Below are positions 332 to 8,953 of a DNA stretch of 34,519 nucleotides, piece after piece (position 1 is the stretch's first letter; each line of letters starts with the position of its first letter). The notes below the pieces were generated by a model. It was not told the DNA's origin. It was given only the letters and a program-made list of their open reading frames with translations, and did not search any database. The stretch covers positions 1 to 34,519 of the forward strand of contig JAJEAG010000089.1 of assembly GCA_022824265.1 (NCBI GenBank), written 5' to 3'. Position numbers and translations under genes: made by a program. Source of the DNA: Candidatus Poribacteria bacterium (GTDB lineage: Bacteria > Poribacteria > WGA-4E > WGA-3G).

Positions 332-362
332 AATGCCAAAATGGCATTCATACCGTTGATTT
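332..362 (+). repeat. Hairpin repeat with TTCATACCGTTGATTT tail, copy 1
   Basis: A stem AATGCC/GGCATT (332-337 with 343-348) and its right edge run into TTCATACCGTTGATTT (347-362). The same 16 bases recur at 9969-9984 after a stem of different sequence (AAAGCC/GGCTTT), so the paired structure is kept while bases change. The tail contains TTGAT, the target motif I recall for ISDra2-type elements, but no transposase lies beside either copy. Confidence 0.55.
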
Positions 363-1205: not shown

Positions 1206-2762
1206 ATGTTGAATAAGAATTTGGAGGCGAAACAGGTAGCAGCAGTCAGAAAAATTCTGTCTGAAGTGCCCGTTGCCTCTGCGTACTCCCCTGTAACAGA
1301 GTCAATGGATAAAGCGACTGAATTAGGGGAGGACAAAATTGCGGCTGCACTCAAAAATTTCAGTTCTATGCCGCAATCCACAAATGTTTTCGCCAACCCC
1401 GTTTTACACAAGGCAGCTGTAAACTGTAAAGATGCACAGATAACCCTGAATATCCGAAGTTTCGGAATCCGCGGTGTCGTTTCAGAAAGTGAAATTATTG
1501 CTAACAAACTTAGCCCCGCTCATGTTATTTTTACAGGTCTTTTCGGTAGAAAACCTGAAAAACATTCTGATGATATTGATGAAGAAACTATTTTATCCGA
1601 ATTAATAGATAAAAAGTTTTATCTATTTACTGAACTCCGCAGAGATGGTCTAACAGGTAAGCAACGCCTCATAAATCAGGTCGCAGAATTCGTAAAATCC
1701 TTCCCAGATGCTGGACCCGAAGCAGTCATTCAACATTTTTCAACGCTACGCAAATTAAGTGTCCCAAATCAGAAAGGTATAAAAGGCACAAGAAAACCAG
1801 GCTCTCTACTTTTAGAACTCATCGGAACGCACATGGAAAACGTTGCCTTGGGGACAGTATCTGTATTCATGCGCCACCAGTTAAGACAGAGCAGTGCTTT
1901 ACATCCACAAGTACTCGCAATGCGTGCCAATGACCTTATTACTGAAAGCCAGAAAAATGAGAAAACTGCATTCCAAACATGTTATAGTCTCCTTTTGGGT
2001 AGAGAAGCAAGTTCCGTTGAAGCAAATATATTAGAACGGATGGGTATAATACAGACACATCACGGTTCTGCAGGTTCAAACGTAGTTGCTCGCTACCTTG
2101 CTACTTTATACGCTGGTGCAGTTTCCGATTTCTTCGTCGCATCACAGATGGCTTTAGATGGCGATAGACATTTCGGGGCAATCCATGATATGACAGCTTT
2201 TATCAATCAGATAGAACCACTTGACACGGATGCAAGGGAAACAGCAATTCGTGAACGGATGCGTATCGCGCTACCAACCTTCGGACACCCTGAAATCGCC
2301 GCTGCTGGCAGATCCGATGAAATCCAACAAGACCCCAGACCCGCAATCTATTTCAATCCTTTTATTGATGCTGTTGAAAAAGGAGAAATACAACTTAACG
2401 ACAGTCAGAAGAAACGATTATCAATTATGCAACGCATATATCAAATTGCGTTCATTGAGGGAGTTGTTCGTCCCGGTCGTGAAAATGAACCACCGCTCCG
2501 TCTTACTCCTAATACAGACTTTGGCGGATGGGCAGTTCAAGAAGGATTGGATATCTATGAAAGCGACAGGACATTCCTCACATATATCTTCCGAGGATTT
2601 GGATGGATAATGGATGCGCGTGAACAACTTCAAATGAAAATCATACGACCAGTCATACCCCCAGACCCCGAAATTATTCCGAAACCGTCCGATGATATGA
2701 CAATCGCTAATGAAGTCGTTGCATTACATGATCGGATGGCTGGTCCAGAAATTTTTGACTAA
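1206..2762 (+). CDS. gltA: Divergent citrate synthase
   Basis: Condenses acetyl-CoA and oxaloacetate to citrate, the entry step of the TCA cycle. The three catalytic residues of the family can be located: a His in THHGSAGSN (285-292, replacing the usual HEQNAST region), His361 in TFGHPEI followed by DPRP (377-379), and Asp438 in PNTDFGG. The end, FGWIMDAREQ..KIIRP, matches the family's GWIAHW..KIARP. At 518 residues it is longer than the usual 370-430, mainly through the N-terminal half (residues 1-200), where I see little family resemblance. ATG 1206 is chosen because AAGGAG (1195-1200) lies 5 bases upstream; an in-frame ATG at 1143 lacks a ribosome site. The next gene is icd, which supports a TCA role. 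A 2-methylcitrate synthase cannot be excluded. Confidence 0.8.
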   Translation: MLNKNLEAKQVAAVRKILSEVPVASAYSPVTESMDKATELGEDKIAAALKNFSSMPQSTNVFANPVLHKAAVNCKDAQITLNIRSFGIRGVVSESEIIANKLSPAHVIFTGLFGRKPEKHSDDIDEETILSELIDKKFYLFTELRRDGLTGKQRLINQVAEFVKSFPDAGPEAVIQHFSTLRKLSVPNQKGIKGTRKPGSLLLELIGTHMENVALGTVSVFMRHQLRQSSALHPQVLAMRANDLITESQKNEKTAFQTCYSLLLGREASSVEANILERMGIIQTHHGSAGSNVVARYLATLYAGAVSDFFVASQMALDGDRHFGAIHDMTAFINQIEPLDTDARETAIRERMRIALPTFGHPEIAAAGRSDEIQQDPRPAIYFNPFIDAVEKGEIQLNDSQKKRLSIMQRIYQIAFIEGVVRPGRENEPPLRLTPNTDFGGWAVQEGLDIYESDRTFLTYIFRGFGWIMDAREQLQMKIIRPVIPPDPEIIPKPSDDMTIANEVVALHDRMAGPEIFD

Positions 2763-2848
2763 TAGAAGGTTCTCTGTTGCTACTCCCCTATAAAAACTAA
2801 TACGTGAGAAGACTATAGAGATTCTATGTGAAACAGAGAGGAATCCAA

Positions 2849-4096
2849 GTGATTGAATTTGACCAATTAACACCCCCCACAACAGGTGAAAAGATAGAAA
2901 CAGCCAACGGGCAGAAGGTTGTACCAAACAATCCTATTATCCCTGTTATTGAGGGAGACGGTATCGGACGAGACATTATGAAAACAACACGACGTGTCGT
3001 TGATGCAGCTGTCCAAACCGCTTACGATGGCAAAAATCAGATTGTCTGGTTCGATATCTACGCTGGCGAAAACGCCATGGCAAAATATAATGAGTGGCTG
3101 CCACAAGACACCTTCAATGCAATTGAACATTTTCGTGTGGCACTGAAAGGACCCCTGACAACACCTGTCGGCGGTGGATTTCGTAGTTTAAACGTAACCC
3201 TGCGTCAAGTACTTGAACTCTATGCCTGCGTCCGACCTGTCCGTTACTTCCAAGGAGTACCCGCACCTGTTACGCACCCTGAAAAAATGGATGTCGTAAT
3301 CTTCCGTGAGAATACCGAAGACGTATACGCTGGGATTGAATGGGAACAAGGCACACCAGAAGTAAAAAAGGTCATTGACTTACTTCGCACTGAAATGGGT
3401 GTTGAAATCCGTGAGGACTCTGGTGTTGGCATTAAACCGATAAGCATTTTCGGAACAAAACGTTTAGCGAGAATGGCAATTCAATACGCAATCGACCACG
3501 ACAGACGAAGTGTCACCTTCGTTCATAAAGGGAATATCATGAAGTTCACCGAAGGTGCTTTCTGTGCTTGGGGATACGAACTCGCTAAAGAGGAATTTGC
3601 TGATACTACCATCACGGAAGCAGAACTCTATGATGACTATGACGGAAACGTTCCAGATGGTAAAATAATCATCAATGACCGAATAGCGGATAGCATGTTA
3701 CAGCAAATCCTAACGCGAACCGATGAATATGATGTGATTGTAACACCGAATTTGAATGGAGATTATCTCTCTGATGCAGCGGCAGCGCAGGTCGGTGGAA
3801 TCGGTATGGCACCGGGTGGCAACCTCAATGATGAAGTCGCCCTCTTTGAAGCAACGCACGGCACAGCACCCAAATATGCTGATCAAGATGTCGTAAATCC
3901 GAGTTCGCTTATCCTTTCTGCAGTGATGATGTTAGAACATATCGGTTGGCAAGAAGCAGCAGACCTGATTATCGCAGGACTTGAAAAAACCATTCTTCAA
4001 AAACGGGTTACCTATGATTTAGAACGTTTGATGGAAGGAGCAACGAAAGTTGGTACGTCTGAATACGGTGCAGCTATTATTGAAAACTTTCAGTAA
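2849..4096 (+). CDS. icd: Isocitrate dehydrogenase, NADP-dependent
   Basis: Oxidises isocitrate to 2-oxoglutarate and CO2 in the cytoplasm. The protein aligns over its full length with E. coli Icd (416 residues, here 415). From GTG 2849, numbering coincides with the E. coli enzyme: Ser113 ([13 protein letters not shown], the AceK phosphorylation site), Arg119, Arg129, Arg153 (IFRENTED), Tyr160 and Lys230 ([11 protein letters not shown]). Lys342-Tyr343 in [10 protein letters not shown] correspond to the residues that bind the NADP phosphate, so NADP use is expected. GTG 2849 has AGAGAGGAA just upstream and restores the numbering; an earlier in-frame GTG at 2828 is less likely. It lies 86 bases after the citrate synthase gene, probably in one transcript. 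Confidence 0.95.
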
Positions 4097-4130
4097 TAGC
4101 ATACTACAACGTTTAAAAGGAGAACGGCAC

Positions 4131-4268
4131 TTGTCATTAAAAACAAAGATTTTTCTTGGTATCGGTTTGTTAGGTGGCATCGGTTTTGTAATGGCATTTG
4201 GGTTATATCGTATCCATAAACGTATCTTGGAAGAGTTAATAGCAATTCGTGAGCAGGGAGAAAGGTAG
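4131..4268 (+). CDS. Small single-pass membrane protein between icd and mdh
   Basis: A TTG start at 4131 sits 8 bases after a strong AAAAGGAGAA ribosome site (4115-4124) and gives 45 residues. Residues 7-25 form one hydrophobic, glycine-rich helix (FLGIGLLGGIGFVMAFGLY) followed by a basic, charged amphipathic tail (RIHKRILEELIAIREQ). I do not recognise a family. It fills the gap between two TCA enzymes: icd ends at 4096 and mdh begins at 4317. It could hold an enzyme at the membrane or be unrelated. The same frame runs upstream to 4050 inside icd, but that extension has no ribosome site. Confidence 0.55.
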   Translation: MSLKTKIFLGIGLLGGIGFVMAFGLYRIHKRILEELIAIREQGER

Positions 4269-4316
4269 TACTGTACAACACAAACCATCAGATTATTTTC
4301 CAAAATGGAGGAAGAA

Positions 4317-5243
4317 GTGGCAAGAAAGAAAATTAGTGTTATTGGCGCAGGTAACGTTGGAGCAACAGCAGCATTCCTGATAGCACAGAAGCAACTTGGC
4401 GATGTCGTCATGATTGACATCGTTGATGGAGTCCCACAAGGCAAGGCATTAGATATGGCAGAAATGGGACCGGTAGAACTGTTTGACGCTGCGATCAGTG
4501 GTGACCTTGATTATTCCGCAACCGCAGATTCCGATTTAGTGATTATCACATCGGGTTCTCCACGTAAACCGGGCATGACACGCGAAGACCTTTTACAAAC
4601 AAATGCAAATATCGTCGGAAGCGTAACAGAAAATGTAGTGAAGCATTCACCAGACACCATCATTATGATGCTCACCAATCCATTGGACATCATGACCTAC
4701 CACGCATGGAAGGTATCAGGATTCCCTTCACACCGAGTCGTTGGACAAGCAGGTGTATTGGATTCAGCACGGTTTCGTTATTTTATCTCACTTGAACTTG
4801 GTGTATCGGTAGAAGACATCCATGCCCTCGTACTTGGTGGACACGGTGACACGATGGTACCCCTACCACGTTATACCACCGTCAACGGTATCCCCATACC
4901 GCAGTTGATACCCGAAGATCGCATTGAAGCAATGGCACAGCGTACTCGTGATGGCGGTGCCGAGGTGGTCAACCTTCTCAAGACGAGTGGATATTACGCC
5001 GCAGGTGCATCATTAGCACAGATGGCAGAAGCGATTATCTTGGATAAGAAACGGCTACTCCCATGTTCCGCACATCTCACAGGACAATACGGTATCAACG
5101 ACCTTTATATCGGCGTTCCGATTAAACTCGGTGCAAACGGCATTGAAGAGATTGTTGAGATTGAATTGACTGATGACGAGTTAGGTGCATTACAGACTTC
5201 TGCGAATACTTATCGTGAAGGAATTGCATTGTTGGGATACTAA
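4317..5243 (+). CDS. mdh: Malate dehydrogenase, LDH-like type
   Basis: NAD-dependent interconversion of malate and oxaloacetate, which feeds citrate synthase. The Rossmann motif is GAGNVGA (residues 10-16), with Asp34 marking NAD rather than NADP. Substrate residues are visible as Arg83 and Arg89 (SPRKPGMTRE), Asn121 (NPLD) and Arg153. The catalytic pair is Asp149 and His176 (GGHGDTMVP). Arg83 rather than Gln separates it from lactate dehydrogenase. Its 308 residues are normal for the bacterial LDH-like MDH. GTG 4317 follows GGAGGAAG (4307-4314) at good spacing; ATG 4305 overlaps that ribosome site, so it is not the start. It is the last enzyme gene of the cluster. Confidence 0.93.
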   Translation: MARKKISVIGAGNVGATAAFLIAQKQLGDVVMIDIVDGVPQGKALDMAEMGPVELFDAAISGDLDYSATADSDLVIITSGSPRKPGMTREDLLQTNANIVGSVTENVVKHSPDTIIMMLTNPLDIMTYHAWKVSGFPSHRVVGQAGVLDSARFRYFISLELGVSVEDIHALVLGGHGDTMVPLPRYTTVNGIPIPQLIPEDRIEAMAQRTRDGGAEVVNLLKTSGYYAAGASLAQMAEAIILDKKRLLPCSAHLTGQYGINDLYIGVPIKLGANGIEEIVEIELTDDELGALQTSANTYREGIALLGY

Positions 5244-5860: not shown

Positions 5861-7783
5861 CTATTCCTTATCCTTATTCTCATCTTCGTCAACAACTTCG
5901 TATTCAGCATCAACGACATCCTCTGGTGGAGCATCTTCAGACGGAGCATCTTGGGGTGCATCGCCCGGTTCAGCACCAGCAGTCTGTTGATACAGTTGCG
6001 CTGAAGCCTCATGCCAGATTTGCATCAGGTCATCCGTTGCAGATTTTATCTCAGCATTGTTGTTCGCTTCCAGTGCTTGTTTGACGCGTTCAACACCTGC
6101 ATTGACTTTTTCCTTAGTCGCATCGTCAACCTTATCACCGAATTCTTTTAGATTTTTCTCAGTTTCATAGACCAATGAATCAGCACGGTTGCGAGTTTCA
6201 ACTTCCTCACGCTTCTGTTTATCCTCTTCAGAATGTGCTTCCGCATCTTTCACCATCTGTTCAATTTCCGCATCGGTGAGACCGGAGGAGGCAGTGATTG
6301 TAATGTTCTGCTCCTTACCCGTTGCTGTATCCTTCGCGGATACATTGAGAATACCATTCGCATCAATATCAAACGTAACCTCAATCTGTGGAACGCCTCT
6401 GGGTGCTGGCGGAATATCACTAAGTCGAAACCGACCAATTGTTTTGTTGTAGACTGCCTGTTCCCGTTCACCTTGGAGAACATGCACATCAACCGAAGTT
6501 TGGCTGTCTTCTGCAGTTGTGAACTTCTCGGATTTCTTAGTCGGAATCGTGGTATTCTTTTCAATTAACCGTGTAAACATTCCACCAAGTGTCTCAATAC
6601 CGAGTGAAAGCGGGGTTACATCAAGCAACAGAATATCTTTGACTTCCTCGTCACCAGCAAGCACACCACCCTGAATCGCAGCACCAACCGCCACAACCTC
6701 ATCGGGATTAACACCTTTGTGTGGTTCTTTACCGAAAAGTTGCTCCACTGCTTCCTGAACTTTTGGCATCCGTGTTTGCCCACCGACGAGTATAACTTCG
6801 TCTATATCTGCAGGTTGCATCTCAGCATCATTAAGAGCTTGTCTGCAAGGAGTAAGAGAACGTTCAACCAACTCATCGGTTATTTGTTCCAGTTTCGCAC
6901 GTGTAAGTGTTAGATTAAGGTGCTTGGGACCGCTTGCATCAACAGTGATAAACGGGAGGTTAATATCTGTTTGCACTGTGCTGGAAAGTTCACATTTTGC
7001 AGTTTCTGCTGCCTCTTTCAGACGTTGGAGTGCCATCTGATCGTTCCGTAGGTCAATACCCTGACTACTGAGGAATTCCTGTGCCATCCAATCAATTATG
7101 GCTTGGTCAAAGTCATCCCCACCGAGGTGTGTATCGCCATTAGTGCTTTTCACTTCAAAAACACCATCACCGATCTCCAGAATAGAGATGTCAAATGTGC
7201 CACCACCAAGGTCGTAAACAGCGATTTTCTTATCGCCTTCACTCTGCAACCCATAAGCGAGTGAAGCAGCAGTCGGTTCGTTGATAATACGTAGAACTTC
7301 TAAACCAGCGATTTTACCTGAATCTGCTGTCGCTTGACGTTGTGAGTCGTTGAAGTACGCAGGCACGGTGATAACTGCTTGTGTGACCTCTTCCCCAAGA
7401 TACGCTTCTGCTGTTTCTTTCATTTTCCGCAAAACCATTGCGGAGATTTCGGGAGGAGAGTATTCTTTACCTTCAATGTTTACTGCCACATCACCATCTT
7501 TATCACTTTTCAATTCATAAGGAACGCGGGAAGAGTCGTCTCCAAGTTCGCTATATTTTCGTCCCATGAACCGTTTAATAGAAAATATTGTGTTTTCAGG
7601 GTTCGTGATAGCTTGTCTTTTTGCTACTTGTCCGACCGGACGTTCTCCTTCTTTCGTGAAACCGACAACCGAGGGAGTCGTCCGATTTCCCTCTGCGTTT
7701 TCTATGACTTTTGCGTCGCCACTTTCTAAAACGGCAACACATGAATTTGTTGTTCCTAAATCAATTCCAATTACTTTACCCAT
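5861..7783 (-). CDS. dnaK: Chaperone DnaK (Hsp70)
   Basis: ATP-driven chaperone that folds and protects proteins with DnaJ and GrpE. The sequence is complete at 640 residues: the nucleotide-binding half opens with [14 protein letters not shown] and contains the [23 protein letters not shown] and DLGGGTFD motifs. The substrate-binding half follows the [11 protein letters not shown] linker, and the acidic C-terminus ends in [12 protein letters not shown]. The start has a GGAG ribosome site 6 bases upstream (7790-7793). No grpE or dnaJ is next to it, and no CIRCE or sigma-32-type element is seen. Instead a sigma-54-type promoter lies upstream (7839-7854), with two dyad sites further out. Confidence 0.98.
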
Positions 7784-7838
7784 TTTTTTCTCCGATTTAT
7801 TAATTCTATTCTTTTATAATAATAATGATAAATATAAG

Positions 7839-7854
7839 TGCAATATCTGTGCCA
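7839..7854 (-). promoter_or_regulatory. Sigma-54 (RpoN) promoter of dnaK
   Basis: Read on the minus strand, the sequence is TGGCACAGATATTGCA. GG and GC are separated by exactly 10 bases, fitting the consensus TGGCAC-N5-TTGCW at every position. Transcription would begin near 7828, leaving about 45 bases before the dnaK start. Sigma-54 promoters need an activator bound upstream, and two dyads are present there. Confidence 0.65.
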
Positions 7855-7893
7855 ACCTTAACCCCTTAGATTGAGTGGTTTACACAGTAACCG

Positions 7894-7906
7894 TGTCAAA
7901 TTGGCA
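7894..7906 (-). promoter_or_regulatory. Upstream dyad 1 of dnaK (TGTCAA-N-TTGGCA)
   Basis: A 13-base dyad with one mismatch, centred about 72 bases before the predicted dnaK transcription start. It matches the perfect dyad at 7939-7951, 45 bases further out. Position and pairing fit an activator (enhancer-binding protein) site for a sigma-54 promoter. Confidence 0.45.
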
Positions 7907-7938
7907 GTTTTAGCCTTAATATAACTTTCGGCTGCTAA

Positions 7939-7951
7939 TGTCAATTTGACA
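7939..7951 (-). promoter_or_regulatory. Upstream dyad 2 of dnaK (TGTCAA-T-TTGACA)
   Basis: A perfect 13-base palindrome around a central base, about 117 bases before the predicted start. It lies just past the end of the LamG gene, so it may read as a tandem operator or enhancer site with dyad 1. Confidence 0.45.
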
Positions 7952-7962
7952 CACTACGAATG

Positions 7963-8751
7963 TTAATACTTCTGTTTAATACTGCCCCACATTGTGGAGA
8001 GTTTTGCGGTGGGTTCAACTGCTAAGATATCCTCAATACCACCCTGTATCCTTTGAACCTCTTTTTGGGTAAGTCCACGGTTAAATAGAGCAAACTCATC
8101 CATATCACCGTTATAGTATCGGTTTAGATTGAGAGGTTCCTCAGTACCAAGAATTAAGGGTGATTCAACAGGAACTAATTTGGCATCTTGCTTCGGATGA
8201 TCTATCAACACCTCTCCATCAAGATATACAGTCCACCATTCTGCTCTTTGATAGGAAACAGCAACATGCTGCCAATTATCTTTGTCTATCTTGACGGGAC
8301 TTTTTGCAGGAACTTGACGACCATTTGTTAACTTCCATCCCATCCAAATATAACCATCTGGATGAAGAAGTATCTCAAAAAACTCGTCTACATCGGGTCC
8401 TTTTGCAGCAATTAGTTGCCATGTGCCAGCACCAACAACCAACGTAGGACGAATCCACGCAGAAATAGTGATACCTTCGGTGAATATAAAGTCGTTATTA
8501 TGTTTAACGCTAACGATGCCGTTCTTACCACCAAAATTAAGCCCTTTACCGAATTTACCATCTCCCCAGTCAGTATCACCTTCTAAATCTCCATGGTTTC
8601 CGTTCCCTGACAGGTCCTCAACGGTTTCACCTTTGCCACTTTCAAATGCAAAATATACAACCAAGCCGTTTAATTCTGCAGCCATGCAAGTTACCTGCGA
8701 ACTTGCCATAAGACATAAAACTGTGCATAAAACAATAAATATGTTTCGCAT
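7963..8751 (-). CDS. Secreted LamG-like (concanavalin-type jelly-roll) protein
   Basis: A signal peptide (MRNIFIVLCTVLCLMASSQVTC) is followed by a single LamG-like domain of the LamG-3 type. Recognisable parts are LVVYFAFESGKGETVEDLSGNGNHG, the FTEGITISAWIRP strand, WQHVAVSYQ.. with VYLDGE, and MDEFALFNRGLTQKEVQRI near the end. Such domains bind sugars or cell-surface molecules outside the cell; no catalytic residues are seen, so an enzyme activity is not proposed. The start is set at ATG 8751 because AGGTGA lies 5 bases upstream; a frame extension to 8775 is possible but lacks a site. It is 262 residues. A following 180-base gap separates it from the PhyH gene upstream. Confidence 0.75.
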   Translation of the reverse strand: MRNIFIVLCTVLCLMASSQVTCMAAELNGLVVYFAFESGKGETVEDLSGNGNHGDLEGDTDWGDGKFGKGLNFGGKNGIVSVKHNNDFIFTEGITISAWIRPTLVVGAGTWQLIAAKGPDVDEFFEILLHPDGYIWMGWKLTNGRQVPAKSPVKIDKDNWQHVAVSYQRAEWWTVYLDGEVLIDHPKQDAKLVPVESPLILGTEEPLNLNRYYNGDMDEFALFNRGLTQKEVQRIQGGIEDILAVEPTAKLSTMWGSIKQKY

Positions 8752-8953
8752 GGGTTCACCTGTTTTCATATTCAATTGACTGAAATTTAGAATATCTCAG
8801 TATGTATTTTCTAATTGACATCTCGTCTACTAACTTCAATGAATCGTGATAAGGATTATATAGTTTGTCGACTTGATTAACAGAAAAATAGGGTACGGAA
8901 ATTGTGTGGTGTAGACCGAAGTCGATTACATCTGTTTTATACAAAGAACATCT

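What the first reader, a model, noticed from the sequence alone, without database searches (positions are those of the whole stretch)
7784..7962. dnaK under a sigma-54 promoter with two enhancer-like dyads
The minus-strand TGGCAC-N5-TTGCA is a full match to the sigma-54 consensus with the required 10-base spacing, 45 bases before dnaK. Upstream at about -72 and -117 are TGTCAA-N-TTGRCA dyads, 45 bases apart, one perfect. This is the textbook layout for activator-dependent transcription, yet dnaK is usually controlled by sigma-32, CIRCE/HrcA or sigma-70. It implies that chaperone synthesis is tied to a signal sensed by an enhancer-binding protein.
Basis: partly seen in the sequence, partly recalled or inferred. 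Interest (0 to 1): 0.7.

Follow-up and report, generated by a model that had tools for sequence, protein, structure and literature searches.

The report
Sigma-54 heat-shock regulon in Poribacteria
In a phylum of mostly sponge-associated and marine bacteria, the genes for the main protein-folding helpers (DnaK, GroES/EL, ClpB, Hsp20) share an activator-dependent sigma-54 type of switch, and one family has lost the usual heat-shock repressor HrcA altogether, so chaperone production there probably hangs on an active, signal-gated activator.

Summary
Upstream of dnaK (minus strand) lie a perfect sigma-54 -24/-12 element (7839-7854) and two dyads (7894-7906, 7939-7951) centred at about -72 and -117. 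The genome is a Candidatus Poribacteria genome with one rpoN gene. Across 48 genomes of its family with readable dnaK upstream DNA, 46 keep the sigma-54 element and 44 a dyad; reversed-sequence controls give 0. Proximal dyad to -24 spacing is fixed at 52-54 bp while promoter-to-ATG distance drifts from 56 to 329 bp. The same pair of elements precedes clpB, groES and hsp20. In the window's genome those four chaperone loci are the only places where a TGYCA-N3-TGRCA dyad precedes a sigma-54 site. HrcA is absent from all 59 genomes of this family but present in 19 of 26 other Poribacteria. In most other families the sigma-54/dyad promoter stands before a small receiver gene that precedes dnaK. Matching elements occur before hsp20 in Zixibacteria, KSB1 and Ignavibacteria-like genomes. 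The activator is not settled: two sister enhancer-binding proteins are candidates. Sigma-54 promoters for chaperones were predicted in 2025 for Planctomycetota and Bacteroidota; the dyad, the HrcA replacement and this phylum appear new. No expression data exist here.

The parts
5861..7783 (-). dnaK (Hsp70, 640 aa), the regulated gene; convergent with the malate dehydrogenase gene, so probably a single-gene unit
   Evidence: Pfam HSP70 E 1.1e-268
7789..7793 (-). GGAGA, likely ribosome-binding site
   Evidence: sequence
7784..7828 (-). predicted 45-nt 5' untranslated leader, start at about 7828
   Evidence: inferred from the -12 position; not mapped
7839..7854 (-). sigma-54 -24/-12 element TGGCACAGATATTGCA
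   Evidence: conserved in 46 of 48 relatives of the family and as a footprint in the alignment
7894..7906 (.). proximal enhancer-like dyad, TGCCAATTTGACA on the minus strand, centre about -72
   Evidence: 52-54 bp before the -24 element in relatives
7939..7951 (.). distal enhancer-like dyad TGTCAAATTGACA, perfect, centre about -117
   Evidence: 96-98 bp before the -24 element in relatives
7963..8775 (-). upstream neighbour, Laminin-G-domain protein (270 aa); ends 11 bp before the distal dyad and bounds the regulatory region
   Evidence: Pfam Laminin_G_3

Best explanation
The region 7784-7962 is an activator-dependent sigma-54 promoter of dnaK. RNA polymerase with sigma-54 would sit at TGGCAC-N5-TTGCA as an inactive closed complex. 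A Fis-HTH enhancer-binding protein (EBP, AAA+ ATPase) would bind the two TGYCA-W3-TGRCA dyads at -72 and -117 and open the complex with ATP when a proteotoxic or envelope signal is present. The same switch controls clpB, groES(EL) and hsp20, so it is the main chaperone (heat-shock) regulon of these Poribacteria, in place of HrcA/CIRCE. Shown here: the DNA elements, their conservation and fixed spacing, their restriction to four chaperone loci in this genome, presence of rpoN, and absence of HrcA. Inferred: sigma-54 dependence of transcription, binding by an EBP, induction by stress. Undecided: the EBP, most likely one of two sister paralogues. EBP1 (own C44:8815-10179) sits behind secD-secF across the phylum, usually with a histidine kinase; in this family it has lost its receiver. 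EBP5 (own C90:2899-4326) has a receiver without the phosphorylatable aspartate in every orthologue examined. In this family neither form should be switched by its own receiver's phosphorylation, so control by a partner protein (perhaps a chaperone, as for sigma-32) is the leading guess.
For: Sigma-54 element upstream in the window's family: dnaK 46/48, groES 24/24, clpB 27/28, and 0 in reversed sequence; dyads 44/48, 21/24, 20/28. hsp20 18/19 Poribacteria, 0 reversed. In own-genome dnaK, groES, clpB and hsp20 the dyad precedes a sigma-54 site; of 26 dyads genome-wide no other has a sigma-54 site with at most one mismatch within 320 bp. About 0.14 such pairings are expected by chance from 2 sigma-54-like sites in 117 kb. 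Alignment: GTCAA-N-TTGAC, TGCCAWWTTGRC and TTGGCAYRGATATTGC stay constant while spacers vary. Spacing fixed at 52-54 and 96-98 bp, promoter to ATG 56-329 bp. rpoN present. HrcA 0/59 in the family, 19/26 elsewhere. In most other families the sigma-54 site, the dyad or both stand before a receiver gene that precedes dnaK. EBP1 and EBP5 found across the phylum. An EBP with a nearly identical HTH to EBP1-family members is divergent from hsp20-dnaK in L359, with TGACAAAATGGCA and TGGCACGGTAATTGTT between them.
Against: No transcript, binding or mutant data. Dyads as such are not enriched in the genome (26 against 28). Family f4 lacks a clear sigma-54 site at groES (0/3), and f7 shows it in 3/6. groES in f2 and f3 has sigma-54 sites but only the looser TGNCA-type dyads. 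The EBP is not identified; EBP2 and EBP3 were not excluded, and the L359 activator is not firmly placed in the tree. Presence of RpoH or HspR was not tested, so another heat-shock regulator could coexist.
Confidence: 0.88

Rival explanations
1. The dyads are binding sites of a different regulator (for example a repressor), and sigma-54 activation of dnaK uses another, unseen enhancer.
For: Dyads of this size are also typical repressor operators; the binding protein is unknown. EBP2 and EBP3 were not excluded.
Against: The dyads keep fixed distances (52-54, 96-98 bp) to the -24 element while everything else drifts, they lie at the distance typical of sigma-54 enhancers, and no other block is equally conserved in the alignment.
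Confidence: 0.07
2. dnaK is driven by an ordinary sigma-70 promoter; TTGACA inside the dyads, or TTATCA-N17-TAGAAT at 7831-7803, is its -35/-10.
For: TTGACA ends both dyads on the coding strand; one sigma-70-like match exists.
Against: The sigma-70 scan finds 1 match where 1.5 are expected. In relatives the second dyad reads TTGGCA, which spoils the -35 but keeps the dyad symmetry, and no -10 is conserved.
Confidence: 0.04
3. Chance resemblance to sigma-54 and dyad consensus.
For: Single short motifs arise by chance; TGYCAN3TGRCA is no commoner than its backward control.
Against: Conservation in 46/48 family members, 0 in reversed controls; the same pair before three other chaperone genes.
Confidence: 0.01
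4. The regulon exists but answers mainly to envelope or protein-export stress rather than heat, through the secDF-linked EBP1 system.
For: EBP1 lies behind secD-secF in many families, usually next to a small membrane-anchored histidine kinase.
Against: The targets (dnaK, groES, clpB, hsp20) are mainly cytoplasmic chaperones; EBP1 is not proven to be the activator.
Confidence: 0.3

Closest known systems
Predicted sigma-54 chaperone cluster of Planctomycetota and Bacteroidota (PMC12316311, 2025)
   Same: DnaK, GroES, GroEL, IbpA, GrpE and DnaJ genes with predicted sigma-54 promoters
   Different: In the passages read that work names no enhancer site or activator for the chaperone cluster, and it does not mention Poribacteria; here dyads, fixed spacing, loss of HrcA and candidate EBPs are shown
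Chlamydia hrcA-grpE-dnaK operon with tandem sigma-66 and sigma-54 promoters (PMC8762339)
   Same: A sigma-54 promoter ahead of a dnaK operon
   Different: There HrcA still controls the operon and rpoN falls on heat shock; here HrcA is gone and no second conserved promoter is seen
Myxococcus xanthus HsfB-HsfA and lonD (Ueki and Inouye 2002, cited in PMC9548883)
   Same: Heat-shock gene switched on by a two-component system whose regulator is, from own knowledge, of the NtrC/EBP type
   Different: One protease gene; here a set of four chaperone loci with a shared dyad. The original paper was not read
NifA/sigma-54 control of a groESL copy in Bradyrhizobium, and sigma-54 promoters of rpoH and ibpB in E. 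coli (own knowledge, not read here)
   Same: Chaperone or heat-shock genes with a sigma-54 promoter
   Different: Single extra copies or auxiliary promoters beside sigma-32; here the main chaperone genes
PspF phage-shock activator (own knowledge)
   Same: EBP without receiver, held by a partner protein, as EBP1 of this family might be
   Different: Different targets; EBP1 carries a long insert before its HTH

Membership tests
sigma-54 (RpoN) dependent promoter | TGGCAC-N5-TTGCW with GG and GC 10 bases apart | tested here: met
sigma-54 (RpoN) dependent promoter | rpoN in the genome | tested here: met
   PF04552 hit at C8:21537-22010, E 9.9e-61
sigma-54 (RpoN) dependent promoter | upstream enhancer sites, conserved and at set distance | tested here: met
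sigma-54 (RpoN) dependent promoter | activator with AAA+ domain and Fis-type HTH encoded in the genome | tested here: met
   six EBP genes; which one binds here is open
sigma-54 (RpoN) dependent promoter | transcription requires RpoN and an EBP | not testable with these tools
   needs expression or in vitro work
HrcA/CIRCE heat-shock control | HrcA gene | tested here: not met
   PF01628 absent from all 59 genomes of the family; found in 19 of 26 other Poribacteria and in 7 control genomes
HrcA/CIRCE heat-shock control | CIRCE element before dnaK or groES | tested here: not met
   best match 8 of 18 mismatches at own dnaK, groES, clpB; 0-1 mismatches at groES in some f5 and f7 genomes, where HrcA exists
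HspR/HAIR control | HAIR element CTTGAGT-N7-ACTCAAG | tested here: not met
   5-6 of 14 mismatches at own dnaK, groES, clpB; the hspR gene itself not searched
sigma-32 (RpoH) regulon | rpoH gene and sigma-32 promoter | not tested
Predicted sigma-54 chaperone cluster of Planctomycetota/Bacteroidota | sigma-54 promoters on several chaperone genes together | tested here: met
   dnaK, groES, clpB, hsp20

The most novel reading that the evidence does not exclude
A sigma-54/EBP heat-shock system with the operator TGNCA-W3-TGNCA is an old, general class of chaperone control beside sigma-32, HrcA/CIRCE and HspR, shared by Poribacteria, Zixibacteria, KSB1 and Ignavibacteria/Kryptonia-like lineages; in one Poribacteria family it replaced HrcA and its EBP works without phosphorylation of its own receiver, perhaps by chaperone titration.
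Probability: 0.4. Interest if true: 0.85.

Novelty: new variant of a known kind. Interest (0 to 1): 0.7.

Why it matters
Heat-shock control in bacteria is usually taught as a sigma-70-class factor (sigma-32) or a repressor lifted from a sigma-70 promoter (HrcA, HspR, CtsR). Here a phylum appears to run its core chaperones from sigma-54 promoters that are silent without ATP-driven activation. That predicts a low basal level and a steep, signal-gated response, and it makes the sensor a defined, testable protein. It also offers a case where HrcA loss and direct sigma-54 control of dnaK fall in the same family, and a motif that can be used to trace the system in many uncultured phyla.

Tried and rejected
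1) Strict TGTCAANTTGACA as the regulon motif: too narrow; only dnaK matches exactly in the genome. The working motif came from comparing the chaperone promoters. 2) Dyad count alone as evidence: rejected, 26 against 28 in the control. 3) Autoregulation as a way to name the EBP: no dyad beside any own EBP gene or beside the EBP5 genes scanned before that script stopped (17 of 30 loci). 4) EBP5 as the certain activator: weakened once the secDF-linked EBP1 family proved widespread too and the L359 cluster matched EBP1-family members best. 5) An EBP5 counterpart in Zixibacteria, KSB1 and others: matches are at background level and keep the aspartate. 6) EBP4 (GAFTSA) and EBP6 (no GAFTGA loop) are poor activator candidates by sequence. 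8) A first count that placed dnaK of other families outside the regulon was wrong: the promoter lies before a receiver gene further upstream.

Full report
What is there. On the minus strand before dnaK (5861-7783; Pfam HSP70) the sequence TGGCACAGATATTGCA (7854..7839) is a perfect -24/-12 element, with a predicted start near 7828 and a 45-nt leader. Two dyads, TGCCAATTTGACA (7906..7894) and TGTCAAATTGACA (7951..7939), are centred near -72 and -117 and lie 45 bp apart. The region is bounded by a Laminin-G gene that ends at 7963. In the window, TGNCAWWWTGNCA occurs 3 times against 0.20 expected. The exact sigma-54 pattern occurs 22 times in the 4.45-Mb genome against 2 for the backward control, so the genome uses such promoters.

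Which organism. Named relatives found through hsp20 are Candidatus Poribacteria. The 85 genomes of the phylum fall into ten families, here called f1 to f10 as coded by the tool; the window is in f1.

Conservation of the dnaK promoter. In f1, 46 of 48 readable dnaK upstream regions hold a sigma-54 element and 44 hold a dyad; the same test on the reversed sequences gives 0. The distance from the proximal dyad to the -24 element is 52-54 bp in 34 cases and from the distal dyad 96-98 bp in 10, while the distance from the sigma-54 element to the ATG ranges from 56 to 329 bp. An alignment of eleven species shows the two dyads and the -24/-12 element as islands between variable spacers. In the second dyad TTGACA often becomes TTGGCA with a matching change on the other arm (TGCCAATTTGGCA): the symmetry is kept, a sigma-70 -35 box is not.

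Other families. In nearly all readable genomes of f2, f3, f5, f7, f8, f9 and f10, dnaK follows a small single-receiver gene, and the sigma-54 element and/or a dyad lies before that gene. Examples with both: G023 -641 and -706, G017 -738 and -803, G001 -616 with -717 and -757, G004 -558 and -634, G014 -566 and -699, G002 -590 and -680. G018 and G020 show only the dyad; G008, G009 and G006 show only the sigma-54 site. In f4 and f6 the gene before dnaK is grpE-like or differs, and only G026 shows a paired site, far upstream. So the promoter is older than the family, and in f1 the receiver gene was probably lost, which brought the promoter next to dnaK (inference).

The regulon. groES: sigma-54 in 24/24 f1 genomes and in most other families; own groES at C84 has TGGCATATATCTTGCT and TGCCAAAATGGCA. 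clpB: 27/28 in f1; own clpB at C14 has TGGCACAAATATTGCT and TGCCATATTGGCA. hsp20: 18/19 named Poribacteria loci, 0 reversed, often two sigma-54 elements in tandem. In the own genome there are 26 TGYCAN3TGRCA dyads, no more than the backward control (28). Five of them precede a sigma-54 site with at most one mismatch, and these five serve exactly dnaK (two), groES, clpB and hsp20. One further dyad, inside a gene on C52, has a two-mismatch site downstream and was not counted. With 2 sigma-54-like sites per 117 kb of own DNA about 0.14 pairings would be expected by chance. grpE, dnaJ, htpG, lon and clpP of the own genome were not examined.

What it replaced. HrcA is missing from all 59 f1 genomes and found in 19 of the 26 others. 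Own dnaK, groES and clpB have no CIRCE or HAIR-like site, whereas groES of some f5 and f7 genomes has CIRCE with 0-1 mismatches, so the test can see it. rpoN is present in 80 of 85 genomes, own copy included. RpoH, HspR and CtsR were not searched.

Who binds. The own genome encodes six EBPs. EBP6 lacks the GAFTGA loop; EBP4 and EBP2 have altered loops. EBP5 (C90:2899-4326) has orthologues in all ten families, with a clear gap to the next EBP in most and a narrow one in f9 and f10. In every orthologue examined the receiver lacks the phosphorylatable aspartate: Pro, Gln, Ala, Ser or Glu stand there. EBP1 (C44:8815-10179) belongs to a family found behind secD-secF, usually with a small histidine kinase, in f2, f3, f4, f5, f7 and f10; in f1 the kinase and the receiver are gone. 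EBP1 and EBP5 families are close paralogues (one clade of 24 rows, SH-aLRT 90) with similar recognition helices. In L359, an unclassified bacterium, an EBP with a canonical receiver and the helix IGLRTLYRKIEKY is divergent from hsp20-dnaK, with TGACAAAATGGCA and TGGCACGGTAATTGTT in between; its best matches in the set are EBP1-family members, although the tree does not place it firmly. I give EBP1 about 0.45, EBP5 about 0.35, another EBP 0.2.

Beyond the phylum. Among 60 non-Poribacteria hsp20 loci with enough upstream DNA, 9 carry TGNCAWWWTGNCA against 0 reversed, and 12 of 61 have sigma-54 elements against 0; they include Zixibacteria, KSB1 and Ignavibacteria-like genomes. This points to an older system, but sampling followed hsp20 only.

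Known or new. A 2025 survey predicted sigma-54 promoters for chaperone genes in Planctomycetota and Bacteroidota (PMC12316311). Chlamydia has a sigma-54 promoter beside an HrcA-controlled one (PMC8762339). Full-text searches found no report on Poribacteria, the dyad, or an EBP for this regulon; subscription journals are mostly not covered. I therefore rate it a new variant of a known kind.

Noticed in passing
L470-L487; for example L473 (G023), -544 to -52 before dnaK: Outside family f1, dnaK is preceded by a small single-receiver protein with a conserved basic tail (FFRWIRIIRHK-like); a receiver co-transcribed with a chaperone under sigma-54 is unusual and may feed back on the activator.
   Followed up: partly
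L249-L278, L410-L426 (EBP5 orthologues): An enhancer-binding protein conserved through the phylum whose receiver lacks the phosphorylatable aspartate; in several families it is followed by a small membrane protein and a MoxR-type ATPase.
   Followed up: partly
L203:8815-10179, L213, L218, L442, L443, L445-L448: A histidine kinase-EBP pair sits behind secD-secF in many Poribacteria families; in family f1 the kinase and receiver are lost and small proteins of unknown function with an SCTxRKKYK-like motif stand in their place.
   Followed up: partly
window 334-346: A lone dyad TGCCAAAATGGCA in non-coding sequence before the citrate synthase-like gene (1143-2762), without a sigma-54 site downstream.
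   Followed up: no
L025-L043 (own genome): Other perfect sigma-54 sites precede TonB-like, WD40-repeat, PhyH-like and carboxypeptidase-regulatory-like genes, so several sigma-54 regulons exist with few EBPs.
   Followed up: no
L359:443-1870 and 1923-4464: In an unclassified bacterium an EBP gene is divergent from an hsp20-dnaK pair, a natural place to test the regulator.
   Followed up: partly
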